From NCBI GenBank assembly GCA_023269235.1, contig JAHFTW010000001.1:293548-357547 (forward strand): a stretch of 64,000 nt of DNA, written 5' to 3'. A program made the translations under genes and the position numbers. This document shows, piece by piece, positions 1 to 30,742 of the stretch. Under the pieces are notes generated by a model. The model made no database searches, was not told the origin of the DNA, and saw only the letters and a program-made list of their open reading frames with translations. This DNA comes from Thermoplasmata archaeon (lineage in GTDB: Archaea; Thermoplasmatota; E2; JACPAO01; JAHFTW01). The first letter of the stretch is position 1, and every line of letters starts with the position of its first letter.

Positions 1-1478
1 GGGCCGAGGTCGGACTGAGGCGTGAACCACTGCGTGCCGTACCAGCCGAAGGCGCCCTCGATGTGGGACACCGCGCGGCCGACCGCCTTCGTCGTCGAGA
101 GGAGCGCGAAGTAGCCGTCGGACGTCACCGCGAGGATGGGGTGGCCGCCCTGCAGGCCCGTGTTCGCGACGAACGTGGTGTTGCCGGTGAGGGGGTCGAT
201 GGACCACAAGTCGAGGTCGCCGACGCGGGCGCGGGTGCGGTGGGCGTAGCCGTTGTCCACTTCGCAGACGACGTACACGAGGCCGTTCCAGGCGACGGGG
301 TTGCTCGCGTCCATGCACGGGCCGATGAGCTTGGTCCGGTTGCGCTGGCTCTCCAGGCGCGCCCAGTCGTTGCGGCCGCTGACCTTCGTCACCGCGGCGT
401 CGATCCAGCCCGCGAAGCCGGTCGTGCTGTTGCGGTAGTCCATGGCCTTCTCGAACCAGACCACGGCGACGCGCTCGAGGGAGCGGTTGACGGGGGCGGC
501 CTCCTGGCCGATCTGGTCCTGCGTCGCGGGCGGCGGCACGGTGCCGTTCGCGGTGAGCGTGTAGTTCAGGAGCGGGGGCTCGGGGACGCGGGGAAGGACG
601 TCCACGAGGTACGCGTTGGCGATGATGTCGGTCGGGCCGCGGCTGCGGATGTAGTGGCCCGTCGTGTACTGCTGGCTCAGCGAGGCGCCGTCGTGCGTCG
701 TGGCCGCCTTGTACAGGCCGATGATGCCCGGGTAGCCGCTCTCGGCGTCGCCCCCAGGTTGGCTCCACAGGAACATCGCGTAGAGGTTGCCGGCGGAGTC
801 CATGGCGCCGCTCGCGGACTCGCCGAGGTAACCGGCCCCAGAGCCGCCGTAGGCGGTAGGCTGGTCGAGCCAGGTCAGGCCCTGGTCGCTCGTCGTGAAC
901 GCCGTGTGCGTCAGGTTGGCGCGGCTGCGGGGCGTGGGACCGTTGCTCGCCGGGTCGCCGTGCAGCGCGAAGAACGCCATCTCGCGCTCGTCGAGGGGGT
1001 TCACGGCGATCTGGGGGTTGCCAAAGTGGTACATCGCGTCATAGACGCGGAACGGGCAGCCGTACACGGTGCGGTCCTGGCTCGTGCCCTGCTGGACCGT
1101 CTGCGTGATGAACTGCGTGTTGGCCGTCGGCGGGCAGCGGAACTGCAGCGGCGCGGGCGCCGCGGCGGCGTCAGAGCCCGACGCGCCGGCCGGGAGGGGT
1201 GCGGGCGCGCCGGTGACGAGCACGCGGCCATGCGTGAAGGTGAATGCGTCCATCGTCGGCGCGGCGACGGCGCGGGAAAGTGTCTCGACCGCGGCCGGCG
1301 CGGCGGGAACCAAAGGAATCTCGGCGACGGTCATGCCGGACGGGGCCGCGACGGAGGGGATGGTGGGCAGGCCGACGGCAGGGACCGCCGCCGGGCCGAC
1401 GTGGGCCGAGGCCGGGGTCGCAAGAAGGGCGACGAGGGCGGTTGCCAAGAAGAAACGGGCCCGGGCCGGGTCCAGCAT
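1..1478 (-). CDS. Exported beta-propeller (BNR/sialidase-like) protein, 3' end cut by window edge
   Basis: Open frame read on the minus strand from an ATG at 1478 to the window edge with no stop, giving 492 residues; the C-terminus is missing. Residues 1-25 form a Sec signal peptide (RAR, then a hydrophobic core, then TPASA), so the mature protein would begin at His26 (HVGP). The body is rich in Asn, Gly, Trp and Tyr and contains an Asp-box-like segment (TTSDQGLTW), which suggests a sialidase-type beta-propeller and resembles the lipoproteins at 55.5-60.9 kb. There is no lipobox. A TATA-like box, GCTTATCC at 1502-1509, is centred 27 nt before the ATG, so the mRNA is probably leaderless. The substrate is unknown. 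Confidence 0.75.
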   Translation of the reverse strand, partial: MLDPARARFFLATALVALLATPASAHVGPAAVPAVGLPTIPSVAAPSGMTVAEIPLVPAAPAAVETLSRAVAAPTMDAFTFTHGRVLVTGAPAPLPAGASGSDAAAAPAPLQFRCPPTANTQFITQTVQQGTSQDRTVYGCPFRVYDAMYHFGNPQIAVNPLDEREMAFFALHGDPASNGPTPRSRANLTHTAFTTSDQGLTWLDQPTAYGGSGAGYLGESASGAMDSAGNLYAMFLWSQPGGDAESGYPGIIGLYKAATTHDGASLSQQYTTGHYIRSRGPTDIIANAYLVDVLPRVPEPPLLNYTLTANGTVPPPATQDQIGQEAAPVNRSLERVAVVWFEKAMDYRNSTTGFAGWIDAAVTKVSGRNDWARLESQRNRTKLIGPCMDASNPVAWNGLVYVVCEVDNGYAHRTRARVGDLDLWSIDPLTGNTTFVANTGLQGGHPILAVTSDGYFALLSTTKAVGRAVSHIEGAFGWYGTQWFTPQSDLG

Positions 1479-1501
1479 TGCGCGTCCACGAAAGGCCTGG
1501 C

Positions 1502-1695: not shown

Positions 1696-3180
<1,485 letters not shown>

Positions 3181-7139: not shown

Positions 7140-7553
7140 GTGCGCATCCTGGCACTCCTCGCCCTCGTCACGCTCGCCGGCTGCATGGCCGAGACCCCTG
7201 TCGCCCTCACGCTTGACGCGACGACCTACACAATCACGACCACTGGGGTCCCCACGGCCGCCGTCGCCCCCGGCTCGACGTTCCAGGTCATCGTCAAGGT
7301 TGCCGGGTCGGTCGAGAGCATGACGGACCACGCAGGCGCCCACTTCGGCAAGAACAGCACCGCGACGCCGTCGACGAGCGTCTACACCTCCACCTGCACG
7401 CATTCGGGCGGCAAACTCCCTCAAACCTTCACGGCGACCTGCAAGGCCCCGCAGACGGCTGGCGTCTACCACCTGCGCGGCCACGCCCGCGTCACCAAGG
7501 ACAACGTCACCACCAACTGGTGGGGCGCCGACGAGACTTTCACGGTCGGTTGA
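7140..7553 (+). CDS. Small lipoprotein with Ig-like body
   Basis: From the GTG at 7140 the 137-residue product starts VRILALLALVTLAGC, a lipoprotein signal with the lipidated Cys at residue 15. The rest looks like one small beta-sandwich with two Cys residues in a CTH...TCK pattern, several His residues and a C-terminal NWWGADETFTVG. No family is recognised. The start is supported by a TATA-like box GCCTTGACCC centred about 27 nt upstream; an earlier ATG at 7053 would place the lipobox 44 residues in. It is divergent from the PDH operon and lies 74 nt before another exported protein. Confidence 0.7.
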   Translation: MRILALLALVTLAGCMAETPVALTLDATTYTITTTGVPTAAVAPGSTFQVIVKVAGSVESMTDHAGAHFGKNSTATPSTSVYTSTCTHSGGKLPQTFTATCKAPQTAGVYHLRGHARVTKDNVTTNWWGADETFTVG

Positions 7554-7580: not shown

Positions 7581-7600
7581 GTTCAAAGAACGACAAAGTT
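7581..7600 (+). promoter_or_regulatory. Shared 20-bp operator-like element, copy 1
   Basis: GTTCAAAGAACGACAAAGTT, identical to 26778-26797. It begins 47 nt before the ATG at 7628, exactly the distance seen at the second copy, and abuts a TATA-like box (GTTCAAGG, 7598-7605) at -27. It contains CAAAG twice with a 10-bp period, so both repeats face the same side of the helix. Likely binding site of a common regulator. Confidence 0.7.
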
Positions 7601-7627: not shown

Positions 7628-8509
7628 ATGCGCAAGTCCCTGCTCGCCGTCGCCACGCTGCTGGCCCTCGCCGCCTCCGCGTCCGCCCATGTCACCGCCA
7701 CCGTCGATCCCCTCGCGGCCCCGCTTGTCGTCGGCGTCCCCACGACCGTCACCGTCCACTTGAGTGAGCCCTGCGCCGAGGTCGTGCCCCAGGAACTCCA
7801 AGGTCAGGACACGGTCGCCGTCGGCCTCATGCCCGACTCCTCGACCACCATCACCGGGTTGGGCGAGACGGTCCCCTTCGCCTCGGCGCAGTGCGACCCG
7901 ACCGCCGTCCCGCTTGCGTTGGTGCGCGCCGACGCCAAGCTCACCCTCACCGCCGGCCCGAACGCGCCCGGACTGACCAACCTCACCCTGCTCGTCACCT
8001 CCTACCTTGGCGGCGGGGCGACGCCGGGGGCGAGCGTCGGCCTGGCGGCCACGGTCGCTTACTTCGCCAACGCCACGCTCGTCGTCGGCCCGACTATGAC
8101 TGTCGGCAACCTCACCACCGTCCCGGTTCGCCTCACCTACGCCGCCAACGCCGCGACCCGGCTGACCCTCGCGGCCACCGCCAGCACCGGCAAGGTCTCC
8201 GGCCTCCCCGCGGGCGAGACCCTGTTCTCCCCGGCTGCGTCGAATAAGACGACGCTCACGCGGAGCTGGAACGCGACGTTCACGCGGGACGGCGCCAAGA
8301 CCGCGGACCTCACGTTCATCGCCACCCTTGCCCCGAAGGCGGGCGGCGCCGCGGCGGCCACGGTGACCAAGATCCTGACCATCCCGGGCCTCGTCGGGGC
8401 TTCCGCGTCGACAAGTCCGGCCGTCTCGTCGAAGACCTCGCCGCTCCCGCTGCCGTTCCTGGCTCTCGTCGGCGCGGCGCTCGTCGCGAGCCGCCGCCGC
8501 TTCGCCTGA
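7628..8509 (+). CDS. Exported protein with C-terminal sorting tail
   Basis: 293 residues. The Sec signal peptide ends ASASA, so the mature protein begins with His (HVTATVDP). Two to three Thr/Val-rich Ig-like beta-sandwich regions follow. The C-terminus has a Ser/Thr spacer, then PLPLPFLALVGAALVA and SRRRFA, a tripartite tail (Pro motif, membrane helix, Arg cluster) like archaeosortase substrates. The N-terminal His after cleavage recalls copper-binding YcnI and CopC proteins, but YcnI homology is not clear. The promoter element at 7581-7600 is shared with the gene at 26825, which carries the same PLPLPFLA tail. Confidence 0.75.
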   Translation: MRKSLLAVATLLALAASASAHVTATVDPLAAPLVVGVPTTVTVHLSEPCAEVVPQELQGQDTVAVGLMPDSSTTITGLGETVPFASAQCDPTAVPLALVRADAKLTLTAGPNAPGLTNLTLLVTSYLGGGATPGASVGLAATVAYFANATLVVGPTMTVGNLTTVPVRLTYAANAATRLTLAATASTGKVSGLPAGETLFSPAASNKTTLTRSWNATFTRDGAKTADLTFIATLAPKAGGAAAATVTKILTIPGLVGASASTSPAVSSKTSPLPLPFLALVGAALVASRRRFA

Positions 8510-8510: not shown

Positions 8511-9140
8511 TCAGGCGAGCTTGCGGCTCCGCGCGTCCGCGGACACTGGTGCCTGGTGCTTGTCCACTTGCCACTGGATGATGGCTATGGCGTGGTTGCC
8601 GTGGTACCAGTGCGGCCCGAGGCTGACGCGCTGGGCGCCGATGCCGTCGAGCTGCGCGTACTCGGCCTTCGTGAACGGGACATGGTCCGAGAGTAGGAAG
8701 ATGGGGTCCACCGGCGGCGTCCACGACTCGACCGGCTCGCCTTTCGGGTCGAGGAGGACGAGCGTGCCCTTGCCTTTGAGGTCGGCGAGCAGCTCCTCGA
8801 GTCCGAAGGCCGCGACGGAGAGCCCCTTCTGCACGTCCTTCCAGTCGGGAACCGACCACGACGCGACGAGCGCCTGCTGCAGCCGCGCCGCCGTGGAGCG
8901 CTCGTCCGGGTGGAGCATCTGGATGGCGGAGCCCTGGATGCGGACGGTCTTCTGGCGCACGGGTGAGGCCGCGAACACTGCATAGAACTCGACGTCCTCG
9001 CGCAGGCCGTGGCTGAGGAAGAACGCGGACTGGATGTTGCGGCACAGCAGGTCCACGCGGCCGGCGCCGGCGGCGAGGTCGTTGAGCGTCCAGTTGCCGG
9101 AAGAGTCGCCCGTGTGGGAGACGGTGATGAAGCGGCGCAC
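8511..9140 (-). CDS. trmY: tRNA (pseudouridine(54)-N1)-methyltransferase TrmY
   Basis: SPOUT-class enzyme that methylates pseudouridine 54 of archaeal tRNAs. The 209 residues show the family signature: MRRFITVSHTG at the start, LNDLAAGAGRVDLLCR, then FFLSHGLREDVEFY. The C-terminal knot segment has FLLSDHVPFTKAEY and SLGPHWYHGNHAI. The start is GTG, 5 nt after the SRP54 stop, so it is co-transcribed with srp54. The length is normal and the motifs are intact. Confidence 0.93.
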   Translation of the reverse strand: MRRFITVSHTGDSSGNWTLNDLAAGAGRVDLLCRNIQSAFFLSHGLREDVEFYAVFAASPVRQKTVRIQGSAIQMLHPDERSTAARLQQALVASWSVPDWKDVQKGLSVAAFGLEELLADLKGKGTLVLLDPKGEPVESWTPPVDPIFLLSDHVPFTKAEYAQLDGIGAQRVSLGPHWYHGNHAIAIIQWQVDKHQAPVSADARSRKLA

Positions 9141-9145
9141 GGCGT

Positions 9146-10501
9146 TCAGCGTCCGCCGGCCATGCCGCCGCCGCGTTGCCCGGGCATGCCGCGCATCATC
9201 TGCCTCTGCAGCTTGCGGTTGCTGCCGAAGCCCTTCATCATGCCCTTCGTGGTCTCGTAGTACTTCAGCAGCTCGCGCACCTCGTTCGTGGTGCGGCCAG
9301 AGCCGCGCGCGATGCGGCCGATGCGAGGCGCCTTGATCAGGTTCGGCTCCTCGCGCTCTTGCGGCGTCATGGAGTCAAGGATGACGCGGTAGGTCCGCAT
9401 CTTGACTTGCGTGCCCTCCATGTCCCGGCCCTGGAGCATCTGGCCCATCTGGCCGGGGAGCATCGAGGCGACCTTGCCGAGCGGGCCCATCTTGGCGACC
9501 ATGTCCATCTGTTGGCGCATGTCGTCGAGGGTGAAGCGGCCGCTGAGCATCTTGCGCGCCATCTTGTCGGCGTCGGTGCCCTCGGTCGCGGCCTTGGCCT
9601 TCTCGAGGAGGGCCTCCAGGTCGCCCATCCCGAGCAGGCGGCCGATGAAACGCTTCGGGTCAAGGGCCTCCAGCTCGTCCACGTGCTCGCCCGTCCCGAT
9701 GAAGACGACCGGGGCCTGCGTGGCGGCGACCGCGGAGAGGGCGCCGCCGCCCTTCGCGGTGCCGTCGAGCTTGGTGATGATGACGCCGGTGACCTGGACG
9801 GCGTCGTGGAACGCCTTCGCCTGCGATTCGGCTTGCTGGCCGACGGCGGCGTCCATAACGAGGAACTTCTCGTCCGGCTTGGCGGCCGTGAAGATCTGCT
9901 TCATCTCCTCGATGAGCGAGTCCTCCAGCTTGTCGCGGCCGGCGGTGTCCACGATGACGATGTCGGTCTTCTTCTTCAGCTCGGCCAGGCCGCGCGTGAC
10001 GATTCCGGCGGCGTCCGTTTCGCCCTTCTCACCGTAGAAGCCGACCTGGACCTTGTCGGCCAACTGCTTGAGCTGGTCGTGCGCGGCGGGGCGGTGGACG
10101 TCCGCGGCGATGACGGCGACGCGCATGCCCTTCTTCTTGAAGTGGAGCGCGAGCTTGCCCGTGGTCGTCGTCTTGCCCTGGCCGTACAGGCCGACCATCA
10201 TGATGGTCTGCTTCTTGAGCGGAATCTGGCGCGGGGCGCCGAGGATCTTGACGAGCTCGTCGTGGACAATCTGGATGACGTGCTCGCGGTTCGACATACC
10301 CGCGAGTGGCTTCTCTTCCAGGGCGCGCTTTTCGATGACCTTGCTGAGCGCGAGGACCTGCCGCACGTTCATGTCGGCCGAGATGAGCGCGCGCTGGATG
10401 TCGCGGGCGACCTCCTTGATGAGCGCCGCGTCGATGTGGCCGGCGTTGGCGAGCTTCTTCAGGGTGGACCTGAGGGAGTCGCCGAGGCCTTCCATGACCA
10501 T
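9146..10501 (-). CDS. srp54: Signal recognition particle GTPase SRP54
   Basis: Targets nascent secretory and membrane proteins to the translocon together with 7S RNA. In 451 residues: N domain (1-90), G domain with P-loop GLYGQGKTTTTGKLA (about 104), DTAGRD and TKLDG, and a Met-rich M domain at the C-terminus (KGMMKGFGSNRKL, ending in a Gly/Met/Arg tail). A box TATTTAGG (about 10524-10531) sits 25 nt upstream of the ATG at 10501. ATG at residue 3 is an alternative start. trmY follows in the same operon. Confidence 0.97.
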   Translation of the reverse strand: MVMEGLGDSLRSTLKKLANAGHIDAALIKEVARDIQRALISADMNVRQVLALSKVIEKRALEEKPLAGMSNREHVIQIVHDELVKILGAPRQIPLKKQTIMMVGLYGQGKTTTTGKLALHFKKKGMRVAVIAADVHRPAAHDQLKQLADKVQVGFYGEKGETDAAGIVTRGLAELKKKTDIVIVDTAGRDKLEDSLIEEMKQIFTAAKPDEKFLVMDAAVGQQAESQAKAFHDAVQVTGVIITKLDGTAKGGGALSAVAATQAPVVFIGTGEHVDELEALDPKRFIGRLLGMGDLEALLEKAKAATEGTDADKMARKMLSGRFTLDDMRQQMDMVAKMGPLGKVASMLPGQMGQMLQGRDMEGTQVKMRTYRVILDSMTPQEREEPNLIKAPRIGRIARGSGRTTNEVRELLKYYETTKGMMKGFGSNRKLQRQMMRGMPGQRGGGMAGGR

Positions 10502-10574
10502 GGCGCCTTCGACTGCCTCTTGGTATTTAGGCGGTGTTGGCGGGCCTGAAAGCCTCCTGGATCATCCCTTGAGC

Positions 10575-11123
10575 GTGGAAGAAACCGGGGGAGGCGCCCC
10601 GACGGACCGCACAGGGGCCGCGAAGCCGGCCGACCGGACGTGGTCGTCCGTCGCCATTCCGCACCACTTCCAGGAGACCGAATACACGTGCGGAGCCGCC
10701 TCCCTTCGCATGGTCCTCGAGGCGGTCGCCGGCGTGGCCCTCGAGGAAAACGACCTCGCCCAGGCGTTGCGCTCGAACGAACAGATCGGCACCCGGCAGC
10801 GGCGGCTGCGGCAGTTCATGACCGACCTCGGGCTCAATGTGCAGGAGTTTGACACGGACACGCGCCTGGACACGATCCGAAACTGCATGGCCTCCGGTCG
10901 GGTCGTGTTGATCCTTTACCATTTGCAGGTCGAGGCCACCGACCACTACGCGGTCGTCCTTCGCATCGGCCCACGACGCATCCTGCTCCAAGACCCATGG
11001 ACGGGTCCCGCGACGGAGATGGACCTGGACGCCTTCGACGCCGCCTGGCGCACGAAGGATGGCGTGGCCGGCCGACGGAGCCGGTGGATGCTCGCGGTTG
11101 CGGCCCAAGCGCCCTTGCCCTGA
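10575..11123 (+). CDS. Peptidase C39-like cysteine protease family protein
   Basis: 182 residues from a GTG start. After a polar N-terminus of about 25 residues comes a papain-like fold of the C39 type, with the nucleophile in TEYTCGAASLRMVLEA (Cys39), the His in TDHYAVVLR (His124) and the Asp in LLQDPW (Asp140). The triad appears complete. There is no signal peptide and no transporter nearby, so a bacteriocin-processing role has no support; intracellular or regulatory proteolysis is possible. The start is supported by CCTGAAAG at 10545-10552 (-26). TTG at 10569 is an alternative. Confidence 0.8.
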   Translation: MEETGGGAPTDRTGAAKPADRTWSSVAIPHHFQETEYTCGAASLRMVLEAVAGVALEENDLAQALRSNEQIGTRQRRLRQFMTDLGLNVQEFDTDTRLDTIRNCMASGRVVLILYHLQVEATDHYAVVLRIGPRRILLQDPWTGPATEMDLDAFDAAWRTKDGVAGRRSRWMLAVAAQAPLP

Positions 11124-11136
11124 GGAATGCTGAGGG

Positions 11137-11367
11137 TCAGCCGAGGATGAGATCGAGCGCGACGCCCATCCCTTTCGGCTCGTCGCGCAAGCCAGGCAGT
11201 GCCTTGCGGGCGCGCTTGACGAGGGCGCGCGCAGCGCGGCCGCCCATGCCGTCGGCGCGGAGCTGGAAGTAGAGCCGGCGCAAGCGGCGGCGTGGGCCCA
11301 GCAGGTTCAGGCGCCGCATCGCCAGGATTTCGAGCAAGGCGTCCTTGACCTGGGCGCGCGGGGTCAA
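11137..11367 (-). CDS. Small basic protein after leucyl aminopeptidase
   Basis: 76 residues starting with TTG at 11367, two nucleotides after the last base of the pepA stop, with GGAGGAG just upstream as ribosome binding site. It is rich in Arg and Leu (AMRRLNLLGPRRRLRRLYFQL), probably helical, and ends GMGVALDLILG. No family is recognised. The ribosome binding site and coupling to pepA support translation. Confidence 0.6.
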   Translation of the reverse strand: MTPRAQVKDALLEILAMRRLNLLGPRRRLRRLYFQLRADGMGGRAARALVKRARKALPGLRDEPKGMGVALDLILG

Positions 11368-11368
11368 C

Positions 11369-12862
11369 CTACTCCTCCAGGATGCGCTGCAGCACGATGC
11401 GCAGGCCGGCCGCGGTGGGGCCCTTGGCGAAGTAGTCCACGCCCGCCGTCCACGCCTTGCTGGCGATGTCAAGGTGGGCCCACTTCGTGTCCTTGGCGAA
11501 GTGCTTGATGAACGAGCCGCCGATGCTGCTGCCGGCGCGGTTGGTGAGACTGATGTTCTGCAAGTCTGCATAGGCGCCCTTGTTGGCCTCGTCGAACTCC
11601 TCGCCTTGTGGCAAGTGCCAGCCTTTGTCGCCGGCGGCGCGGGAGTCCGCCACGAGCTGCTGCGCGAACTTGTCCTGGTTGCCCATGATGGCGACGTGGG
11701 TGGGGCCGACGGCGACCTCGCAGGCGCCGGTGAGGGTCGCCATGTCAATGATCCAGTCCGGCTCGAACGTGCGCGCGTGCGCCATGGCGTCGGCGAGGAT
11801 AAGGCGCCCCTCGGCGTCGGTGTTGAGGACCTCGATCGTGGTGCCGTCCTTCGCGGTGACGATGTCGCCGGGGCGCTGCGCGGCGCCGCTGGGGAGGTTC
11901 TCGACGAGCGGCGTGATGCCGACGACGCGGTGCTTGACGCCCAGGCGCTTCAGGACGCCCATTAGGGCGATGGTGTTGCAGGCGCCAATCTTGTCGTACT
12001 TCATCTCCCACATCTTGTCGCCCGGCTTCAGGCTGATGCCGCCGGAGTCGAAGCAGACGCCCTTGCCAACGACGACGAGCGTCTTCTTGGCGCCCTTCGG
12101 GTGGTAGTCCATCGTGACGAGCTTCTCCTCGTTGAGGGACCCCTGCGCGACGCCGCAGAGGGCGCCGAAGCCTTCGCGGCGCAGCTCGGCGCGGCCCTTG
12201 ACGGCGACCGCGAAGCCGTGCTTGGTGCCGCGCGCCTTGGCCTGCTCCGCCATCCACGCGGGGGTGGCGACGTTTGCGGGCGTGTTGGAGAGCAGACGCG
12301 AGTCGTTCACGGCCTCGGCGGCAAGGAGGGCGCGCTCGACGGCCTTGCGCGCCGCGGTCCCGGCGGCGCCGGCGGGCAGGAGGACCTGGAGCGTCTGGAG
12401 CTTTCCGGCATCGGGGTCCTTCTTCGCGGCCGTCGGGTCGGCGGCGGTCTCGGGTTTCTTGGATTTCCACTGGTCGAAGTCGAGGGCTCCGATGAGGGCG
12501 CCTTGCGTGACGGCCTGCGTCGCGGCGGCGTCCTTCCAGGTGTCGAGGACCAGGCTCGTAGCGGCGACCTTGCATCCAAGCGCCCCGGCGGCGCGCGCGC
12601 CGAGGTTGGCAAGCGTGCCGATCTTCTCCTGGGTCAGTTTCTTCGGGTCGCCGAGCCCGACGAGGAGAAGCCAGCCTTTGCCGTGTGGGAAGGAGCGGAC
12701 CGCTTTGAAGGCGAGGGGCACGTTGGCGTCGGCGAGGGCGGCCGCAGCGGCGTCGTTTTGGATTCCGAACGCCTTGAGTCCAGGCGCCTTGCGCTTGTCG
12801 TCCACGCCGACGAGGAGGCAGTCGGCCTTGTCGGGCGCGGTCACGGGAAGGACCTGGAGCAT
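11369..12862 (-). CDS. pepA: Leucyl aminopeptidase (M17 family)
   Basis: Two-metal cytosolic exopeptidase that removes N-terminal residues from peptides. 497 residues from ATG 12862. The C-terminal catalytic domain has GKGVCFDSGGISLK (267-280) and the M17 signature NTDAEGRLILADAM (347-360), which supply metal ligands and the catalytic Lys and Arg. The N-terminal domain (1-160) is more divergent. The start is supported by an AT-rich box at 12885-12894, 27 nt upstream, which also serves the divergent gene at 12914. Confidence 0.94.
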   Translation of the reverse strand: MLQVLPVTAPDKADCLLVGVDDKRKAPGLKAFGIQNDAAAAALADANVPLAFKAVRSFPHGKGWLLLVGLGDPKKLTQEKIGTLANLGARAAGALGCKVAATSLVLDTWKDAAATQAVTQGALIGALDFDQWKSKKPETAADPTAAKKDPDAGKLQTLQVLLPAGAAGTAARKAVERALLAAEAVNDSRLLSNTPANVATPAWMAEQAKARGTKHGFAVAVKGRAELRREGFGALCGVAQGSLNEEKLVTMDYHPKGAKKTLVVVGKGVCFDSGGISLKPGDKMWEMKYDKIGACNTIALMGVLKRLGVKHRVVGITPLVENLPSGAAQRPGDIVTAKDGTTIEVLNTDAEGRLILADAMAHARTFEPDWIIDMATLTGACEVAVGPTHVAIMGNQDKFAQQLVADSRAAGDKGWHLPQGEEFDEANKGAYADLQNISLTNRAGSSIGGSFIKHFAKDTKWAHLDIASKAWTAGVDYFAKGPTAAGLRIVLQRILEE

Positions 12863-12884
12863 CAGGGGCGCCACAGGCAAAGCA

Positions 12885-12894
12885 GGAATAAACC
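12885..12894. promoter_or_regulatory. Single box serving two divergent leaderless genes (pepA / 12914)
   Basis: GGAATAAACC lies in the middle of a 51-nt gap, centred about 27 nt from the pepA ATG (minus, 12862) and about 25 nt from the ATG at 12914 (plus). No other AT-rich stretch occurs in the gap. The same geometry recurs at 22048-22057 and 48538-48549. Confidence 0.6.
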
Positions 12895-12913
12895 TGGGCC
12901 CTGGTGCGACCGC

Positions 12914-15801: not shown

Positions 15802-15804
15802 GGC

Positions 15805-16898: not shown

Positions 16899-16936
16899 GC
16901 ACGACGGGTCCCGCCGGCGTCCGGGTCCGCGCTGGC

Positions 16937-16944: not shown

Positions 16945-16965
16945 GGCCTCCAGGCTCGGCGCGCC

Positions 16966-18318
16966 GTGCATCTGATCCCCAACGACTCCTTGGAAGCCGA
17001 GATGGCGGCCACGGTGGGCGTGCGCTCCGCTAAGGACCTCTTCTTGGAGATCCCCGCCGCCCTGCGCATCCAGGGGCTCAAGCTACCCCCGGCCGAGCCG
17101 GAGCGGCACATGGCGCGCCGCCTGCGAACGCTGCTCGCGAAGAACAAGTCGTACGAGCAGATGCCAAACTTCCTCGGCGGCGGCCTCAAGCCGCAGCTGG
17201 TCCCCGCCGCGGTGCGCGCCGTGGCGCACCGGCAGGAGTTCATCACCAGCTACACGCCGTACCAGCCCGAGGTCAGCCAGGGCCTCCTGCAGGTCATTTT
17301 CGAGTACCAGTCGTTGATGTGCGACATCACGCGCATGGACGTCAGCAACGCGGGGATGTACGACCAGCCGACGGCGCTCGGCGAGGCCGCCCTCATGGCG
17401 ACGCGCGTCAACGACCGCATGCGCTTCCTCGTGCCCGAGCACCTGAGCTGGGAGAAGCGCAGCATCCTCCACAACTACACGAGGGGGCCCGGCATCGTCG
17501 TCGAGACGTACGGCTACGACGCCAAGACCGGCCGCAGCGACCTCGCCAGCCTCCAGTCCAAGCTCGGCCCCGACGTCTCCGGCGTCTACTTGGAGAACCC
17601 GAACCACTTCGGCGTCTTCGAGGAGGAAGCCAAACGGGTCGGCGAGCTTGCCCACGCGGCGGGCGCCCTCTTCGTCATGGGCGTGGACCTGACGAGCCTC
17701 GGCGTCGTCGCCCCGCCCGGCACGCTCGGCGCGGACATCGTCGTCGCGGAGGGCTCCTGCTTCGGCGGCGCCCCCGCCCTCGGTGGCCCGCTGCTTGGAA
17801 CGCTTTGCGCGACGGAGGCCATCGTGCGCAAGATGCCGGGCCGCATCATCGGTGCCACCAAGGACGAGTCCGGCAAGCGCGGCTTCGTCATGACGCTCCA
17901 GGCGCGCGAGCAGCACATCCGCCGTGCCAAGGCGACCTCGAACATCTGCTCCAATGAGGCGCTGATTGCCAACCAGGCCGCCATCCACCTGACCATGCTC
18001 GGCCGCACCGGCCTGCGCGCCATGGGCCTGCAGAACCTGGAAGCCGGCGTCAAATTGGAGTCTGCGCTCGCGGCCGCCGGCTTCAGCCGCCGTTTCACGG
18101 GCGCCTTCTACAACGAGTTCGTTACCCACACGGCCGACCCGAAGGCGCTCCATGAGCAGGCCCTCAAGGCGGGCGTCCACGCCGGCCACCCGCTCGAGGC
18201 CGACGTCTTCGCGCTCAAGAACTGCCTCCTGTGGGGCAGCACGCCCATCCACAACGACGAGGACTACGCGCGCCTCGCCGAGGCCGTCAAGCCCCAGCTC
18301 AAGGCGGTGAGGGCATGA
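16966..18318 (+). CDS. gcvPA: Glycine dehydrogenase (decarboxylating) subunit 1
   Basis: N-terminal-half subunit of the split P protein that decarboxylates glycine with PLP. 450 residues from a GTG start, with the family segments YTPYQPEVSQGLLQVIFEYQS, which covers the contact region with the partner subunit, SNAGMYDQPTALGEAALMA and NICSNEALIAN. Split GcvP is the usual arrangement in archaea and many bacteria. The stop overlaps the gcvPB ATG (ATGA), so the two subunits are made together. Confidence 0.96.
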   Translation: MHLIPNDSLEAEMAATVGVRSAKDLFLEIPAALRIQGLKLPPAEPERHMARRLRTLLAKNKSYEQMPNFLGGGLKPQLVPAAVRAVAHRQEFITSYTPYQPEVSQGLLQVIFEYQSLMCDITRMDVSNAGMYDQPTALGEAALMATRVNDRMRFLVPEHLSWEKRSILHNYTRGPGIVVETYGYDAKTGRSDLASLQSKLGPDVSGVYLENPNHFGVFEEEAKRVGELAHAAGALFVMGVDLTSLGVVAPPGTLGADIVVAEGSCFGGAPALGGPLLGTLCATEAIVRKMPGRIIGATKDESGKRGFVMTLQAREQHIRRAKATSNICSNEALIANQAAIHLTMLGRTGLRAMGLQNLEAGVKLESALAAAGFSRRFTGAFYNEFVTHTADPKALHEQALKAGVHAGHPLEADVFALKNCLLWGSTPIHNDEDYARLAEAVKPQLKAVRA

Positions 18319-24773: not shown

Positions 24774-25295
24774 TCAGCCGTACAGGCTGGCCCACAGGTC
24801 CGCGAACTCGGTGCGCATGTCCGGCGTCGGCTGGTACGCAAGCAGGAGGGCCAGGAGGCGCGCGCGGTCCGCCGGTTCGAAGCGGCCGTCCGCGCTCTTG
24901 CGCACGACGCCGGCCGCCTCCAGCTTGCGCAGGTGGAAGCTGAGTTTGCTCTTGCCGAGGCCCAGGTCGTCGCAGATGCGCTTGTGCTGCACGGCCTCCT
25001 CCTGGTCAAGGAGATAGAGTGTGATCTGGAGCGGCAGCTTGGCGCGCAGGGCCCCCAGCGCGTCGCGTTCGCGGGCGGAGGGGGCCGCCGCGTCGCCCTT
25101 CGCAAAGAGGCGGGCGTAGCGCTCGTCCCGTTCGACGCGCACGAGGCCATTCTGGCCGAGGATGGCGAGGTGGTACTCGACGAGGGCGACGGAGGTCTCG
25201 AGCTGGCGTGCAAGCTCCCTCACATGGAGGCCGGGGTAGGCCTGGATGGTCGCGTAGATGCGGCGGCGGATGTCGAGGTCGAGGGGGCCGCCCAT
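24774..25295 (-). CDS. Transcription regulator with two winged helix-turn-helix domains
   Basis: 173 residues. The first ArsR-like wHTH spans 1-70 (HVRELARQLETSVALVEYHL), followed by a linker and a second wHTH at about 90-155 (KRICDDLGLGKSKLSFHLRKL). No metal-binding Cys cluster is seen. Two tandem wHTH domains are common in euryarchaeal regulators. It is the last gene of a three-gene unit with a small membrane protein and an exported His-start protein, so it may regulate the neighbouring exported-protein genes. Confidence 0.88.
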   Translation of the reverse strand: MGGPLDLDIRRRIYATIQAYPGLHVRELARQLETSVALVEYHLAILGQNGLVRVERDERYARLFAKGDAAAPSARERDALGALRAKLPLQITLYLLDQEEAVQHKRICDDLGLGKSKLSFHLRKLEAAGVVRKSADGRFEPADRARLLALLLAYQPTPDMRTEFADLWASLYG

Positions 25296-25304: not shown

Positions 25305-25619
25305 TCAGCTCCGGCGCAGGAAGGGCGCGACGAGCAGGAGGACGATGCCGAGGTCGAACGCGCTGTTGAGGAACTCCAGATGGCCGTGGCCGAGCGGGAA
25401 GTCGGCCGGGACCTCCGCGCTCTGGGAGGGGTCCTGCAGGAGGGCGTATCCAGTGACGAGGCTCTTGACGCAGAACAGGGCAAAGGCCCACTTCACGTAG
25501 CCGAGCTTCGCGTTGCCGGACTTCTCCTGCGCGCGTGCGGCGAGGATGGCGAGCGCGAGGCTGACGATCGCGACGCCGCCGACGAGGACGACAGCGATTC
25601 CTTCATGGAACAGGACCAT
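25305..25619 (-). CDS. Small three-helix membrane protein beside regulator
   Basis: 104 residues with three hydrophobic stretches (about 5-27, 42-60 and 84-99) and a polar loop rich in Ser, Glu and His (about 61-83, FPLGHGHLEF). It ends 9 nt before the wHTH regulator start, and 46 nt separate it from the upstream exported protein. Pairs of a wHTH regulator and a small membrane protein are frequent in haloarchaea and suggest a membrane signal that modulates the regulator. That is inference. Confidence 0.72.
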   Translation of the reverse strand: MVLFHEGIAVVLVGGVAIVSLALAILAARAQEKSGNAKLGYVKWAFALFCVKSLVTGYALLQDPSQSAEVPADFPLGHGHLEFLNSAFDLGIVLLLVAPFLRRS

Positions 25620-25665: not shown

Positions 25666-26703
25666 TCAGGCGGCGCGGCGGCGCGCGAGGGCGGCGAGGC
25701 CGACGAGGAGCAGGCCGGTGGGCGGCCCGATGGCCGAGGAGGATGCGGTGCCTTCCGGGGCCGGCGGGGGGGTCGTCTGGTCGCCGACATGCAGCGTGCC
25801 GTCGGGGTCGAGCGCGACTGGCGTGCGGCCGCCGACGTCGGTGAAGATGTCCAGATCCAATGGCGCGGAGCCAACGTGGTCCACGACCAGGCCGAAGGTC
25901 AGGTTGCCCGACGGGCCCAGCGGAGCGGTCGTGGTGCCGGCGAGACGGTAGCCCCAACCGGTGTCGCTGCGCGGCAGGACGTAGACGTGCTGGCCGCCCT
26001 TCGCAAGGACGCTCTGGACGTGGAAGGTGATGTTGCCTGCGCCGGGCTGCTCCGTCGTCACGGCGACGTAGCCGGTGGGGGCCGCCGCCACGACCTCCTT
26101 TACCAGGAGGCCCTTGCCAGGGATGGCGGTGGGGTCGTCGTAGAACAGGAGGCCGTTCGTGCCCGGAACGGGGATGCCTCCAGGGGCGACGTCGCGCAGG
26201 TCCCCTGCGACGCGGGACTCCACCAAGGTGACGCCGACGACATCGCCCGGGGCGACGCCTGCGTGCTGGAAGGAGACGAACGCGCGCTGGACGTGGAGGG
26301 CCCGCTCGGCCGCGTCGGTCGCGGTCAAGAGGGTGTCGAAGTCGCTCGTGAAGGTCTGGCCGTCCGTGGTGCTGAGGGTGCGCACGAGCGGGCCCTTCGG
26401 GGTCTGGAAGGTGAAGGAGACGGTCCACAGCTGGCCCGGGACGGGGACGCTGTTGGCGCGGTCGCCGTACAGCTCCGCGCGAAGGTAGAGGCCGTCGCCC
26501 GCCGCGCCAGGGCCGACTGTGTTGTCATGGGCGAAGCCGAGGAAGACCTCGTTGATGTCGTAACCGCCGTAGGGCTCGATGGCGTCGGAGCCCTCGTCGT
26601 TGAGGAGGTGGACCTCGAGCTCGCTGGCCTCGAAGACGCCGTGGGCGGCCCCCGTTGGCACCAGCGCGACGAGCAGGAACGGAATCAGGGCCCAGGGACG
26701 CAT
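25666..26703 (-). CDS. Exported His-start protein with C-terminal sorting tail (paralogue A)
   Basis: 345 residues. The signal peptide ends PTGAA, giving a predicted mature start HGVFEASE. The body shares a pattern with the proteins at 26825 and 27971: an N-terminal acidic segment, a domain ending APGDVVGVTLVES...APGG, and an Ig-like second domain. The tail is GPPTGLLLVGLAALA then RRRAA. The reading start is supported by CCTTCAAGCC (26724-26733), and CGACAAA lies 39 nt upstream. It heads an operon with the small membrane protein and the wHTH regulator. Function unknown; a copper link is inferred from CopC-CopD nearby. Confidence 0.8.
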   Translation of the reverse strand: MRPWALIPFLLVALVPTGAAHGVFEASELEVHLLNDEGSDAIEPYGGYDINEVFLGFAHDNTVGPGAAGDGLYLRAELYGDRANSVPVPGQLWTVSFTFQTPKGPLVRTLSTTDGQTFTSDFDTLLTATDAAERALHVQRAFVSFQHAGVAPGDVVGVTLVESRVAGDLRDVAPGGIPVPGTNGLLFYDDPTAIPGKGLLVKEVVAAAPTGYVAVTTEQPGAGNITFHVQSVLAKGGQHVYVLPRSDTGWGYRLAGTTTAPLGPSGNLTFGLVVDHVGSAPLDLDIFTDVGGRTPVALDPDGTLHVGDQTTPPPAPEGTASSSAIGPPTGLLLVGLAALARRRAA

Positions 26704-26777: not shown

Positions 26778-26797
26778 GTTCAAAGAACGACAAAGTT
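26778..26797 (+). promoter_or_regulatory. Shared 20-bp operator-like element, copy 2
   Basis: GTTCAAAGAACGACAAAGTT, identical to 7581-7600, beginning exactly 47 nt before the GTG at 26825 and abutting the box GTTTATGG (26795-26802) at -27. Copy 1 has the same geometry. Both target genes encode His-start exported proteins with the same PLPLPFLA tail. Confidence 0.75.
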
Positions 26798-26824: not shown

Positions 26825-27916
26825 GTGAACAAACGGTTGCTGTTTTCCTGGGCGGCGCTTGCGCTCTGCTCGCTCCCCATCGTCGCCGCCCACGGCGCGG
26901 CCCCGACGCGCGAGATTGACACCCGCGTGCTCCAAGATGACGACGGCACGGCAGGCTACACGCCTGACACCTGCGCCCCTGTGCCAGGCTGCCCCTTCGC
27001 CTCCGGAGCGCCTGACCTCCTGGCCCTGGACCTCCGCGAGGCCAGCACCGCGGACGGCCAGCCTGTGCTGTGGTTCCGCGCCGCGTACCAGACCGAGGTC
27101 CCGGCAGGCCCGAAGGCCATCCACATCACCCTGACGGCCGCCGGCAAAGCGCACGAGCTGGACTTCACCAGCGCCGACGGCGTCGCGTTCACCAGCGGGA
27201 CGTTCGCCAAGGTCGTCGGCCCCACCCCCATCGGCGACGGCCACCCGAAGGCCCTCGATGGCATGCTGTTCCCGAGCGCCCTCGGCCTTGGCCCCGGCGA
27301 CACCCTCACGGGCATCTCCGTCGAAAGCCACGGCGCCGGCAATGCCGGCGACCTGATGCCGGGCGGCTGGAGCCCGTCGGAGGGAGTCGAGGTGGCCCCC
27401 ATCCCGAACCCCGCGGAGTCGGAACGGTCCTTCCCCGGCGCCTACACGCTGTCCGGTCCAGCCCCACTGCTGCGCATGATGGCGATGGGGGCGCTCGACT
27501 TGACCGCCGCGAAGGGCCTCGTGATGGTCCACGTCGAGAACGCGCTCTCCGCGACGCAGCAGTTCGCCAACCTCTCCGTGACCGCGCCGGCCGGCGTCGT
27601 CGCCACCTTCGACCCGGCCTCCGTCGCCCTCGATGGCGGCGCCGCCAAGATGGCGACCCTCCGGCTTGTCAAGGCGACCGGCGATGGAGTCCTCAACGTC
27701 ACCGTGCGCAGCGACCTCGGCGCCTACGCCGTCCTCTCCATCCCCTACCAGGGGGCGCCGGCCCACCACGACTCCAACACGACGGCCCTCCCGGGTTCCG
27801 GCACGGGCGACGCGACGAGCCGCCTCCCAGGACCGTCGTCCAGCCACGCCACGCCGTTGCCGCTGCCGTTCCTGGCCATGGCCGTCTCCCTCCTGGTGGC
27901 CCGGCGACGCCGCTAG
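26825..27916 (+). CDS. Exported His-start protein with PLPLPFLA sorting tail (paralogue B)
   Basis: 363 residues from GTG 26825. The signal peptide ends LPIVAA, so the mature protein starts HGAAPTRE. It is homologous over its length to the next gene (27971): an acidic N-terminus with paired Cys (TCAPVPGC), LLALDLREAS, LGPGDTLTG, then VESHGAGNAGDLMPGG, then an Ig-like domain. The C-terminus is TPLPLPFLAMAVSLLVA followed by RRRR, nearly the same tail as the protein at 7628. The start is fixed by box spacing and by the shared 20-bp element. Role unknown; probably surface-anchored. Confidence 0.83.
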   Translation: MNKRLLFSWAALALCSLPIVAAHGAAPTREIDTRVLQDDDGTAGYTPDTCAPVPGCPFASGAPDLLALDLREASTADGQPVLWFRAAYQTEVPAGPKAIHITLTAAGKAHELDFTSADGVAFTSGTFAKVVGPTPIGDGHPKALDGMLFPSALGLGPGDTLTGISVESHGAGNAGDLMPGGWSPSEGVEVAPIPNPAESERSFPGAYTLSGPAPLLRMMAMGALDLTAAKGLVMVHVENALSATQQFANLSVTAPAGVVATFDPASVALDGGAAKMATLRLVKATGDGVLNVTVRSDLGAYAVLSIPYQGAPAHHDSNTTALPGSGTGDATSRLPGPSSSHATPLPLPFLAMAVSLLVARRRR

Positions 27917-27970: not shown

Positions 27971-29059
27971 ATGCGTCTGACCGCTCTCCTCGTCGCTTTC
28001 CTGGCCGCCGTGGCCGTCCTGGCCCCCGCGGCAAGCGCCCACGGCGCCCCGGTGCCGGCGGACTACCAGGCGAGGACGCTGGCCGACGACAACGACGACT
28101 GCGCCGGCGACGGGGCCGTGACCCCGACCGGCAACTGCCGCGGCTCGCACGACCTCATCGCCCTCGACTTGCAGGAGAAGGATGACGGAGGTGGCATCGT
28201 CCTCGTGTTTCGGCTGTCGTTGAACAAGGCCGCCACCTACCCCGTCACGGACACCATCACGTTCCAGGCCGGCTCGGGCAAGACCTTGGCCATCCGCACG
28301 ACAGACGACAAGAGCTTCTCGGTCGCCTCCGGATTCGACTCGGTCGGGGCCCCGCAGAGCCTCAACGACGGGACCCGGTTCACCGTGGACGCCTTCGTCA
28401 TGGCGTCGTCCCTTGGCCTCAACCCGGGCGACCAGCTCACCAGCTTCCACGTCGAGTCCAAGGCCGGGAACAACCTCGGCGACTACATGCCTGGCGGCTG
28501 CAAGACCAACCTCGGGACCGAGTGCTCCGGCACGGACACCTCCACGCGCCGCGACGTCCCCTACACGATGCGCGGCACCGGGTACTACGCCAAGGTCGAG
28601 GCCCCCTCGGACACCATCCAGGTCCCCGCTGGCGGCGACTCCGCCATCACCCAGCTCACCCTCACCAACAGCCTCTCCCACAGCGCGCAGACGCTGAGCC
28701 TCTCCCTCGACGGCCTGAACGGGGTCTCGGGCGGCTTCCATGCCGGCGAGGCGGTCGAGGGCGCCGAGTACACGCCCACCAAGGAGATCGCGTTGCAAGG
28801 CAAGCAGGAGACCGTGCTCCATCTGCGCCTCCACGGCAACCAGGAAGGCGCCTCCGGGACCGTCACCATCACCATGACCACCAACCTGGGCGGTCGCGTC
28901 CAGGCCCAAATCCCGTACCAGGTCGTCCCCTCCGGCAGCGTCTCCTCCACGCCGGACGGGGCCACCCCGTCCACGTCCGCCTCCAAGGGGTCCCCCTTGC
29001 CGGCGGCCCCGCTCGTCGGCGCCCTCCTGCTGGGCCTTGCCCTGCGCCGGCGGTCCTGA
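27971..29059 (+). CDS. Exported His-start protein with sorting tail (paralogue C)
   Basis: 362 residues. The signal peptide ends APAASA, with mature start HGAPVPAD. Paralogue of the preceding gene, with an acidic N-terminus and paired Cys (CAGDG...NCRG), DLIALDLQEK, LNPGDQLTS and VESKAGNNLGDYMPGG, then an Ig-like domain. The C-terminal tail is SPLPAAPLVGALLLGLA then LRRRS. The stop codon directly abuts the ATG of the CopC-CopD-type gene (29060), so the two are co-translated. CGACAAA occurs at 27953-27959. Confidence 0.83.
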   Translation: MRLTALLVAFLAAVAVLAPAASAHGAPVPADYQARTLADDNDDCAGDGAVTPTGNCRGSHDLIALDLQEKDDGGGIVLVFRLSLNKAATYPVTDTITFQAGSGKTLAIRTTDDKSFSVASGFDSVGAPQSLNDGTRFTVDAFVMASSLGLNPGDQLTSFHVESKAGNNLGDYMPGGCKTNLGTECSGTDTSTRRDVPYTMRGTGYYAKVEAPSDTIQVPAGGDSAITQLTLTNSLSHSAQTLSLSLDGLNGVSGGFHAGEAVEGAEYTPTKEIALQGKQETVLHLRLHGNQEGASGTVTITMTTNLGGRVQAQIPYQVVPSGSVSSTPDGATPSTSASKGSPLPAAPLVGALLLGLALRRRS

Positions 29060-30742
29060 ATGCGGCGGTGGGCGGTCCTCGCCCTCCTGCTGGCCCTGGC
29101 GGCCCCCGTCGCGGGCCACGCTGGCCTCGTCTCCAGCGACCCCGCCTCGGGGGCCCGCCTTGACACGGTCCCGTTCGCGGTCCACGTTTCCTTGAGCGAG
29201 GCCATCGAGCCTGGCGGCACCACGATGAAGGTCACCGATGCGGCCGGGCTCCAAGTGGACGATGGCCGCCTCGACATCCAGAACGCCGACAGCCGCCCGG
29301 TCCTCACGCTTGGGCTCAAGACCGGCCTGCCGGATGGCATCTACACCATCAGCTGGCGCGTCCTGTCGAAGGACACGCACACCGTCGCGCAAAGCGTGTC
29401 GTTCGCGGTCGGCGGCTTCACGGCCCCGACGGGCAGCAATGTGAGCGGTGGCGGAATCAACCCCGAGGCCGGCGTCGCCCGCTTCCTGGCCTATCTTGGC
29501 CTCACCTTGGCCCTTGGCGCTGCCGCGTTCTCCACCTGGGTCCTCCCTGGCCGTGCCGACCTGCCGAAACGCCTCCTGGCCCAAGTCGTCGCCGCCGGGA
29601 CCGCCGCCCACCTGGCGGGGACGCTCATGCTCCTGCAGGTCACCTCGGCCGCGAGCCAGCTCGGCTACGCGGACTTGTACCACACCAGCGTCGGCGAGAC
29701 CCTGTTCCTGCGCACTGCGCTCGCCGCGGCCGCTGTCATCCTCGCCCTGGGCGGCGTGGGGGGCAAGGCGCGCGGTGGCTCGACGATGGCGGTCCTCTTG
29801 CTGTGCGGCAACCTCGTCCTCACCGCGATGGCGAGCCACTCCTTCAAGGACGGCCCGGTCACGGTCGCGCTCGATGCTCTGCACCTCGTCGCGGCGACCC
29901 TCTGGGCGGGCGGGCTCCTCCTGTTCTTGCTCCTCGTCGTCCGCGGCGGGGCCGGCCAGGACGTCGCCGCGCTGCGCCGCGTCGGCTCCCGTTTCGGCAC
30001 GCTCGCGTTCGTCTCCGTCGTGGCGCTCGCCGCCACTGGGACCATCACCGGCCTCGCCATCATCGGCCGCGACGCCGTCCTCACTGCCGGCTTCGCCTTG
30101 AGCCCGTACGGCCTCTTCTTGCTCGCGAAGATCAGCGTGTGGGGAGTCATGGTCCTGCTCGCCGCCGTGAACCGCTACATCCTGCTCGCCGAACCTGGGG
30201 AACGCGGCCTCGCGCGCGGCCTGCAGCGGTTGGCGGCACCGCTGAGCGGCGGCCGCCTCAAACCCCTCACGGTCGGCACGCGCCCCTTCGCCCGCGTGCT
30301 CGCGGTCGAGGCCATCCTTGGCGTCATCGTCCTCGTGCTCGCCGGGTTCCTCACCTCTCTCTCGCCTCCGGCGGCTGCCTCCTCCGAGACGCCCACCACG
30401 CTCACCCTGCGCGCCGACGGCGACGTCCACGTGGCGCAGCTGCGGCTCGACCCCGCGCCCCGCGCCGGCCAGGCCTCGACGCTCCACTTCGCCATCCTCG
30501 AGACCGAGTCGGGGCGGGCCGTCACCAACAACACCTGCGGCCGCGACTCGTGCGTCACAATCCAAATCACGGCGCCGGGCAACGCCACGCCGGAGAAGCG
30601 CATCGCGCAGCCGGACGGCCACGGCGACTGGGTCGTCCCCAACGCGCTCTGGACCCGCTCCGGCAACTGGACCGTGCAACTCACGGTCTCGACGGCCGCC
30701 GTCTTCGCCGACACCATCGCCTTCGCCGTGCCGGTCGCCTAA
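29060..30742 (+). CDS. copCD: CopC-CopD fusion copper-resistance-type membrane protein
   Basis: 560 residues. The signal peptide ends APVAG, and the mature CopC domain begins HAGLVSSDPASGARL. Its N-terminal His and the Asp/His in LSKDTHTVAQ are the copper-binding positions of CopC, and ISWRVLS is typical. A CopD-like region of about eight membrane helices follows (about 130-435), then an extracellular beta-domain (about 445-560) of the YtkA type, with two Cys residues (NTCGRDSC). Known role of the family: periplasmic copper binding and copper passage across the membrane. It directly abuts paralogue C. Confidence 0.92.
   Translation: MRRWAVLALLLALAAPVAGHAGLVSSDPASGARLDTVPFAVHVSLSEAIEPGGTTMKVTDAAGLQVDDGRLDIQNADSRPVLTLGLKTGLPDGIYTISWRVLSKDTHTVAQSVSFAVGGFTAPTGSNVSGGGINPEAGVARFLAYLGLTLALGAAAFSTWVLPGRADLPKRLLAQVVAAGTAAHLAGTLMLLQVTSAASQLGYADLYHTSVGETLFLRTALAAAAVILALGGVGGKARGGSTMAVLLLCGNLVLTAMASHSFKDGPVTVALDALHLVAATLWAGGLLLFLLLVVRGGAGQDVAALRRVGSRFGTLAFVSVVALAATGTITGLAIIGRDAVLTAGFALSPYGLFLLAKISVWGVMVLLAAVNRYILLAEPGERGLARGLQRLAAPLSGGRLKPLTVGTRPFARVLAVEAILGVIVLVLAGFLTSLSPPAAASSETPTTLTLRADGDVHVAQLRLDPAPRAGQASTLHFAILETESGRAVTNNTCGRDSCVTIQITAPGNATPEKRIAQPDGHGDWVVPNALWTRSGNWTVQLTVSTAAVFADTIAFAVPVA

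What the first reader, a model, noticed from the sequence alone, without database searches (positions are those of the whole stretch)
1..30742. All six exported non-lipoprotein proteins would begin with histidine after signal cleavage
Predicted mature N-termini: HVGP (gene ending at 1478), HVTATVDP (7628), HGVFEASE (25666-26703), HGAAPTRE (26825), HGAPVPAD (27971) and HAGLVSSD (CopC-CopD, 29060). In CopC, YcnI, LPMO and PmoB proteins an N-terminal His and its free amino group form a copper site (histidine brace). One of the six is a CopC-CopD fusion, three paralogues sit beside it, and a fifth shares a promoter element and C-terminal tail. I infer a secreted copper-binding set. Cleavage sites are read by eye, and most of these proteins show no known copper domain.
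Basis: partly seen in the sequence, partly recalled or inferred. Interest (0 to 1): 0.85.

Follow-up and report, generated by a model that had tools for sequence, protein, structure and literature searches.

The report
Archaeal surface proteins starting with histidine
A family of archaeal cell-surface proteins begins, in all twelve copies found, with a histidine once its export signal is cut off, and its genes often sit next to a copper importer gene, so these proteins may hold copper outside the cell for import, as YcnI does in Bacillus.

Summary
Each of the six genes has a signal peptide with a usable cleavage site directly before a His; my crude rule ranks that site first in 4 of 6. Among 63 other signal-peptide candidates from 609 kb of the same genome (outside the window and a second copper locus), none has His at its best site.

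The interpretation divides. Three proteins (25666, 26825, 27971) form one family ("HG") without a Pfam hit over cut-off. Across 12 members (18-54% identity) the +1 His is 12 of 12. So are two Asp; no other His column exceeds 6 of 11. In 4 of 8 HG loci the gene adjoins a CopC-CopD fusion, whose CopC keeps its His1/Asp/His site.

HVTATVDP shares an exact 20-bp promoter element, present only twice in 1.96 Mb, with the HG-CopCD operon, but its paralogue starts with Gln. HVGP's relatives show no clear +1 His; probably coincidence.

AlphaFold2 gives a possibly DOMON/CBM9-like domain plus an Ig-like domain. With no second conserved His, a two-His brace is unlikely. Best reading: a YcnI-like mono-histidine plus carboxylate Cu(II) site feeding CopCD. 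Metal binding and metal identity are untested.

The parts
29060..30742 (+). CopC-CopD fusion; predicted mature N-terminus HAGLVSSD
   Evidence: Pfam CopC 7.9e-19 and CopD 2.7e-11; His20, Asp105, His107 invariant in 4 of 4 related fusions; no gap to the upstream gene
27971..29059 (+). HG-family protein 1 (mature HGAPVPAD); possibly DOMON/CBM9-like domain, Ig-like domain, C-terminal hydrophobic tail
   Evidence: no Pfam hit over cut-off; 12-member alignment; AlphaFold2 pLDDT 85.7, pTM 0.84; fold searches
26825..27916 (+). HG-family protein 2 (mature HGAAPTRE), first gene of the operon
   Evidence: alignment; copy of this operon on contig C10
25666..26703 (-). HG-family protein 3, divergent subfamily (mature HGVFEASE)
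   Evidence: E 2.4e-5 to protein 1 in the genome search, 1.2e-7 by profile; alignment
26778..26797 (+). shared promoter element GTTC-AAA-GAAC-GACAAAGTT (dyad next to an A/T-rich promoter-like stretch), 27 nt before the start codon of 26825
   Evidence: exact 20-mer only twice in 1.96 Mb, none other with up to 3 mismatches; its 16-base core is expected 0.06 times in the window by chance; spacing
7581..7600 (+). second exact copy of the element, 27 nt before the start codon of 7628
7628..8509 (+). exported protein HVTATVDP, linked by the promoter element to the HG-CopCD operon; no known domain
   Evidence: no Pfam or NCBIfam hit; element; its only relative in the 59 genomes searched (own included) is a paralogue in its own genome that starts with Gln
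24774..25295 (-). double winged-helix (ArsR/HTH) regulator, neighbour of the HG genes here and in G001
   Evidence: Pfam HTH_5 3.9e-14; 52% identical to the regulator near the HG gene of G001
25305..25619 (-). small membrane protein (about 3 TM), conserved neighbour
   Evidence: 38% to the L051 and 31% to the L053 protein beside HG genes; relatives match DUF7471/DUF5985 below cut-off
1..1478 (-). HVGP protein, runs off the window; probably not part of the set
   Evidence: of 3 relatives read, G003's starts with Gln and G001's and G002's have no clear His+1; a neighbouring AAA/Lon-like ATPase gene (by eye) is conserved beside it

Best explanation
The window holds an archaeal copper-handling locus. 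Three exported paralogues (HG family) and a CopC-CopD fusion are made with signal peptides whose removal exposes His1.

In CopC, His1 with the conserved Asp and His forms the known Cu(II) histidine brace. In the HG proteins, the free amino group and imidazole of His1, helped by invariant carboxylates (Asp16 and Asp148, perhaps also Asp/Glu38 and Glu46), form a mono-histidine brace on a DOMON/CBM9-like domain held at the cell surface by the C-terminal hydrophobic tail. They capture or buffer Cu(II) outside the membrane and exchange it with CopC, which passes it to CopD for import. This is the role that YcnI plays for YcnJ in Bacillus, but on a different predicted fold.

HVTATVDP is probably switched on together with them. 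HVGP is not part of it.

Shown: His+1 conservation by alignment, gene order, shared element, CopC ligands. Predicted: cleavage sites, fold. Inferred: metal binding, identity of the metal, ligand geometry, transfer to CopC, import direction, regulator.
For: His+1 is 12 of 12 in HG members at median 25% identity; Asp16 and Asp148 are 12 of 12; Asp38 is 11 of 12, with Glu in the twelfth; no other His column exceeds 6 of 11.

An HG gene directly adjoins CopC-CopD in 4 of 8 loci: the window, own C10, G002 and G003-C131. In a fifth (G086) an HMA-type P-type ATPase lies about 3.5 kb away. A multicopper oxidase gene lies between the two HG genes of G002, and a sulfocyanin-like protein beside the C10 operon (Pfam SoxE 22.2 bits, cut-off 21).

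Operon order HG-HG-CopCD is duplicated in the genome. Shared element found nowhere else. A regulator (window and G001) and a small membrane protein (window, G001, G003) are conserved near HG genes. Background His+1 is 0 of 63.

DUF1775 (YcnI) is found in 0 of 4 genomes of the order; the control rings in B. subtilis. YcnI precedent: amino group and imidazole of His27 plus Glu50 (PMC8424229, passages); YcnI exchanges Cu(II) with the CopC domain of YcnJ (PMC12362106, abstract).
Against: Two HG loci (G003-C83, 17 kb read; G099, 9 kb read) show no copper gene by eye, and G001 has an HG gene but no CopC match (79% complete, HG at a contig end).

NikR-type regulators lie near 2 of 8 HG loci, pointing as much to nickel. 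The conserved Asp set recalls the putative alkali or alkaline-earth metal site of the DOMON domain of dopamine beta-hydroxylase (PMC4846438, passages), which needs no His.

Cleavage sites are predicted by a crude rule that misses His in 2 of the 6 window cases and in 2 of the 3 HG/CopC proteins on C10. In one search antibody and CTLA-4 rows are mixed with the DOMON/CBM9 rows, and no Z reaches 8.
Confidence: 0.55

Rival explanations
1. The HG proteins are His1-based metal binders, but for nickel, zinc or cobalt rather than copper, like DUF4198.
For: NikR_C-type regulators lie beside the HG genes of own C10 and of G086; ZIP-like proteins (by eye) and, on C10, a cation-efflux protein (Pfam) lie in the same clusters; DUF4198 with N-terminal His binds Ni(II) (PMC12537917).
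Against: The closest and most frequent partner is CopC-CopD (4 of 8 loci, 0 to 77 bases apart), and CopC keeps its Cu(II) ligands.
Confidence: 0.2
2. The conserved Asp residues form a structural Ca/alkali site of the DOMON-like fold; His1 is kept for another reason (processing, contact with CopC), and no transition metal is bound.
For: The DOMON domain of dopamine beta-hydroxylase has an Asp-rich putative group 1/2 metal site (PMC4846438, passages) and is among the fold matches (4zel, Z 6.5, rmsd 3.9, 123 aligned).
Against: It leaves His+1 in 12 of 12 at about 25% identity unexplained, as well as the link to CopC.
Confidence: 0.14
3. The HG proteins are copper monooxygenases (LPMO-like) acting on surface polymers, using His1.
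For: N-terminal His; carbohydrate-binding CBM9 modules among the best fold matches (1i82, Z 7.9, rmsd 4.2, 135 aligned).
Against: No second conserved His as in the LPMO brace; CopC-CopD neighbour points to trafficking; Z below 8 may mean only a common arrangement (note).
Confidence: 0.05
4. Chance: six proteins happen to start with His.
For: HVGP relatives show no clear His+1 and the HVTATVDP paralogue starts with Gln; three of the six are paralogues.
Against: 0 of 63 elsewhere; 12 of 12 in the HG family; CopC His is a known ligand.
Confidence: 0.04

Closest known systems
YcnI (DUF1775, PF07987) with YcnJ (CopC-CopD-YtkA) of Bacillus subtilis
   Same: Exported, C-terminal membrane tail, conserved N-terminal His, gene beside a CopC-CopD fusion and a regulator; second ligand of YcnI a carboxylate, not His (PMC8424229 passages; PMC12362106 abstract)
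   Different: DUF1775 has no match in the four genomes of the order; predicted fold here is DOMON/CBM9-like plus Ig-like, against the cupredoxin fold of YcnI; no Trp column conserved in 10 or more of 12; several paralogues
CopC-CopD fusions of archaea, e.g. Nitrososphaera viennensis
   Same: The window's fusion is an ordinary member, with the H/D/H Cu(II) ligands; copC/D is upregulated on Cu limitation in N. viennensis (PMC7785015 passages)
   Different: Here it is joined to HG genes
Signal-strapping families DUF4198, DUF6702, Ang-1, Ang-2
   Same: Secreted proteins recognised by a conserved N-terminal His, several beside metal genes (PMC12537917, abstract, introduction, Results parts 1-2)
   Different: No Pfam match of the window's HG proteins over any cut-off; in that paper DUF4198 and DUF6702 use further His, and Ang-1/Ang-2 are fused to HupE-type permeases
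DOMON / CBM9 / ethylbenzene dehydrogenase gamma fold group
   Same: Among the best matches of the HG N-domain: 1i82 Z 7.9 (rmsd 4.2, 135 aligned), 2ivf_C Z 7.6 (4.1, 135), 7nwn 7.3 (4.6, 136), 4zel 6.5 (3.9, 123), 7b04_C 6.2 (5.0, 143)
   Different: Unrelated Ig-like rows are mixed in from Z 7.3 (9ard) down; no Pfam match of any of the 6 N-domains scanned; a conserved N-terminal His is not known to me in that group (recalled)

Membership tests
CopC-CopD fusion | CopC and CopD domains over curated cut-offs | tested here: met
   68.9 bits (cut-off 23.3) and 44.2 bits (cut-off 32.1); the stricter NCBIfam equivalog cut-offs are not reached
CopC-CopD fusion | Cu(II) ligands His1, Asp, His | tested here: met
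   H20, D105, H107 invariant in 4 of 4
YcnI (DUF1775) | DUF1775 domain | tested here: not met
   no DUF1775 match in the six proteins; 0 of 4 genomes of the order
YcnI (DUF1775) | N-terminal His of the mature protein | tested here: met
   HG family 12 of 12 by alignment; cleavage itself predicted, not measured
Canonical histidine brace (LPMO, PmoB type) | second conserved His ligand | tested here: not met
   HG family: no other His column above 6 of 11
Mono-histidine brace | conserved carboxylate near His1 | tested here: inconclusive
   Asp16 and Asp148 invariant, but no coordinates to measure distance
DUF4198 / DUF6702 / Ang | Pfam or NCBIfam family match | tested here: not met
   the three window HG proteins give nothing up to E 1 except two unrelated weak Pfam matches of 27971 below cut-off
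DOMON / CBM9-like fold | fold of the N-domain | tested here: inconclusive
   several rows of the group at Z 6.2-7.9, mixed with Ig-like rows; Z under 8 may be only a common arrangement; no sequence match
Copper-binding protein | binds Cu | not testable with these tools
   needs purified protein

The most novel reading that the evidence does not exclude
A new class of archaeal cell-surface metalloproteins: a mono-histidine plus carboxylate Cu(II) site built on a DOMON/CBM9-like domain, evolved independently of YcnI's cupredoxin fold but working with the same kind of CopC-CopD importer, and with further unrelated His+1 exported proteins recruited into the same regulon.
Probability: 0.4. Interest if true: 0.75.

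Novelty: new variant of a known kind. Interest (0 to 1): 0.6.

Why it matters
How copper is picked up outside archaeal cells is poorly known. An uncharacterised family whose first mature residue stays His over 18-54% identity, and whose gene often adjoins a copper importer, gives a direct candidate. If right, the same N-terminal His chelate has been placed on another fold for the same job as YcnI. It would also support the idea of the signal-strapping paper that a conserved +1 His predicts metal binding. The 20-bp element gives a ready way to look for the rest of the regulon.

Tried and rejected
Signal-peptide scans: searches (first rule, poor sites; His at 4 of 89 with score >= 3.5, all four in the window or L009; failed, nothing accepted; self-trained matrix drifted to lipoprotein sites; His at 8 of 74, all in the window or L009; fixed rule) are the ones used. 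SignalP was not available.

Sequence search of solved structures with the HG profile gave nothing real (best E 0.44). Foldseek on the whole model was dominated by Ig-like domains, and on the N-domain gave no E <= 0.001, with nanobodies ahead and ethylbenzene dehydrogenase gamma third at 0.012; the DOMON/CBM9 grouping rests mainly. LPMO, CopC or cupredoxin structures were not in the rows shown, which excludes nothing.

A plasmid search with the G086 HG protein found nothing. The scan of GTDB genomes gave two confirmed loci (of 119 stretches), on the contigs already known from G002 and G003. In 389 genomes drawn from the phylum, 7 have a profile match; the matches in G105 and G001:C320 cover only the C-terminal part and were not counted as members (G001:C320 was read and does not start with His; G105 was not read). 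Of five other-genome matches to HVGP I read three; the weak ones at G003:C140 and G026 were not read.

Rejected: the shared C-terminal tail as a mark of the set (13 of 667 genes); HVGP as a member. The lone G002 hit of the relaxed element (L091) is not before an HG gene, and G001, G086 and G099 have none. A first motif search used a wrong pattern and found nothing.

Caveats on the 12: the G001 and G099 copies reach contig ends, and the G003-C83 copy is split into two frames. Relaxed element patterns were drawn from the C10 and G003 copies too, so those two hits are by construction; only the absence of others is informative.

Papers: the rows listed by searches (4 of 4; 5 of 5; 15 of 58; 0) show no paper on such an archaeal family; only open-licence PMC text is covered. 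Seen: PMC12537917 abstract, introduction, Results parts 1-2 of 4 and passages; PMC8424229, PMC7785015 and PMC4846438 passages; PMC12362106 and PMC13344008 abstract and outline; all others listing only.

Full report
Setting. The window is part of a 1.96 Mb, 26-contig genome (93% complete); GC of the window is about 69%. Named relatives of the HG loci are MAGs called "Euryarchaeota archaeon"; I take it for a Thermoplasmatota-type archaeon (inference).

Observation. All six proteins have an n-region with Arg or Lys, a hydrophobic core and a cleavable site directly before His. My fixed rule ranks that site first in 4 of 6; 25666 is called one residue early and CopC-CopD two residues late. In the same scan over 693 kb, 63 candidates outside the window and outside the C10 copper locus have no His at the best site; among the 29 with score >= 1.5, Gln leads with 9, and 2 have His at some allowed site. 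The earlier rules also gave His only in the window or L009. So His at +1 is not the habit of this genome; Gln is.

Family by family. (a) CopC-CopD, 29060: ordinary fusion, with the three Cu(II) ligands invariant in four fusions. (b) HG family, 25666, 26825, 27971: no Pfam or NCBIfam match except two unrelated weak ones. Two further members lie on contig C10 in the same order HG-HG-CopCD; others lie in the three families of the same order and in a family that shares only the phylum. In the 12-row alignment His+1, Asp16 and Asp148 (mature numbering of 27971) are 12 of 12; Asp38 (Glu in one), Glu46 and Asp110 are 11 of 12; no other His column exceeds 6 of 11; pairwise identity 18-54%, median 25%. 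Signal peptides differ between the rows, so +1 seems to be conserved as part of the mature protein. (c) HVTATVDP, 7628: no match in 58 other genomes; one paralogue in its own genome, 26% identical, starts with Gln. (d) HVGP, 1478: of three relatives read, one starts with Gln; the other two have His near, but not clearly at, the mature start.

Gene neighbourhood. HG adjoins CopC-CopD in 4 of 8 loci, with gaps of 0, 0, 7 and 77 bases. In G002 a multicopper oxidase lies between two HG genes. In G086 an HMA P-type ATPase (Pfam), a multicopper-oxidase-like protein (by eye), a NikR-type regulator (Pfam) and a ZIP-like protein (by eye) lie within about 8 kb. On C10 there are a sulfocyanin-like protein, a cation-efflux fusion that itself starts HVEEF, a ZIP-like protein (by eye) and a NikR-type regulator. 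G003-C83 and G099 show no copper gene in the 17 and 9 kb read. G001 ends close to the HG gene and has no CopC match. In the window and G001 a double winged-helix regulator (52% identical) and a small membrane protein (38%) lie near the HG gene.

Regulation. GTTCAAAGAACGACAAAGTT occurs exactly twice in the genome, 27 bases before the start codons of 7628 and 26825, and nowhere else with up to three mismatches. Its first 11 bases are a dyad (GTTC-AAA-GAAC, direct reading). A variant lies before the C10 operon and before the HG gene of G003-C131; G001, G086 and G099 show none and G002 one elsewhere. This ties HVTATVDP to the operon better than its sequence does.

Structure. AlphaFold2 with only six sequences gave pLDDT 85.7 and pTM 0.84. 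The C-terminal part matches Ig-like domains such as the one in a bacterial sialidase (1w8o, Z 10.5, rmsd 2.3, 96 aligned). The N-domain alone (pLDDT 78.7, pTM 0.82) has CBM9, ethylbenzene dehydrogenase gamma and the DOMON domain of dopamine beta-hydroxylase among its best matches, Z 6.2-7.9, with Ig-like rows mixed in from Z 7.3 down. This is suggestive, not proof. No coordinates were handed out, so I could not measure whether His1 lies near the acids.

Mechanism. The closest working model is YcnI-YcnJ: YcnI binds Cu(II) with the amino group and imidazole of its N-terminal His and one Glu, is tethered by a C-terminal helix (PMC8424229, passages), and exchanges Cu(II) with the CopC domain of YcnJ (PMC12362106, abstract). 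HG proteins share layout, neighbour and possible ligand type, but not the family: DUF1775 has no match in the four genomes of the order. So I say they may work like YcnI, not that they are YcnI. The paper on signal strapping (PMC12537917; abstract, introduction, Results parts 1-2 of 4 and passages seen) supports a conserved +1 His as a mark of metal binders, and shows that the metal may be nickel.

Verdict. A real, partly misread observation: four of the six belong to two families in which the N-terminal His is kept, one is tied in by its promoter, one is probably coincidence. New variant of a known kind; metal binding untested.

Noticed in passing
L009 (G000:C10:50000-69999) 9087-17308: Second copper/metal cluster of the genome: HG-HG-CopCD operon copy, sulfocyanin-like protein, cation-efflux protein fused to an exported domain starting HVEEFAADR, ZIP-like protein, NikR-type regulator.
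   Followed up: partly
L052 4848-5099 and 11265-11927; L073 12697-13047 and 17953-18495: Further unrelated exported proteins near HG genes in other genomes that would, by eye, also start with His (HDFAVPVG, HATAPTDD, HNPAETVF, HAGAAIEV); no Pfam family over cut-off.
   Followed up: partly
G000 sample, 29 proteins: Gln is the commonest +1 residue of exported proteins outside the copper loci here (9 of 29), which could give pyroglutamate N-termini.
   Followed up: no
window 7140-7553: Putative lipoprotein with several His and Cys in its mature part just upstream of the element before 7628; no Pfam family over cut-off.
   Followed up: no
L074 5781-6659, L075 10321-11199: Proteins that look like GTP cyclohydrolase MptA (by eye) lie near the divergent HG genes of G099 and G003.
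   Followed up: no
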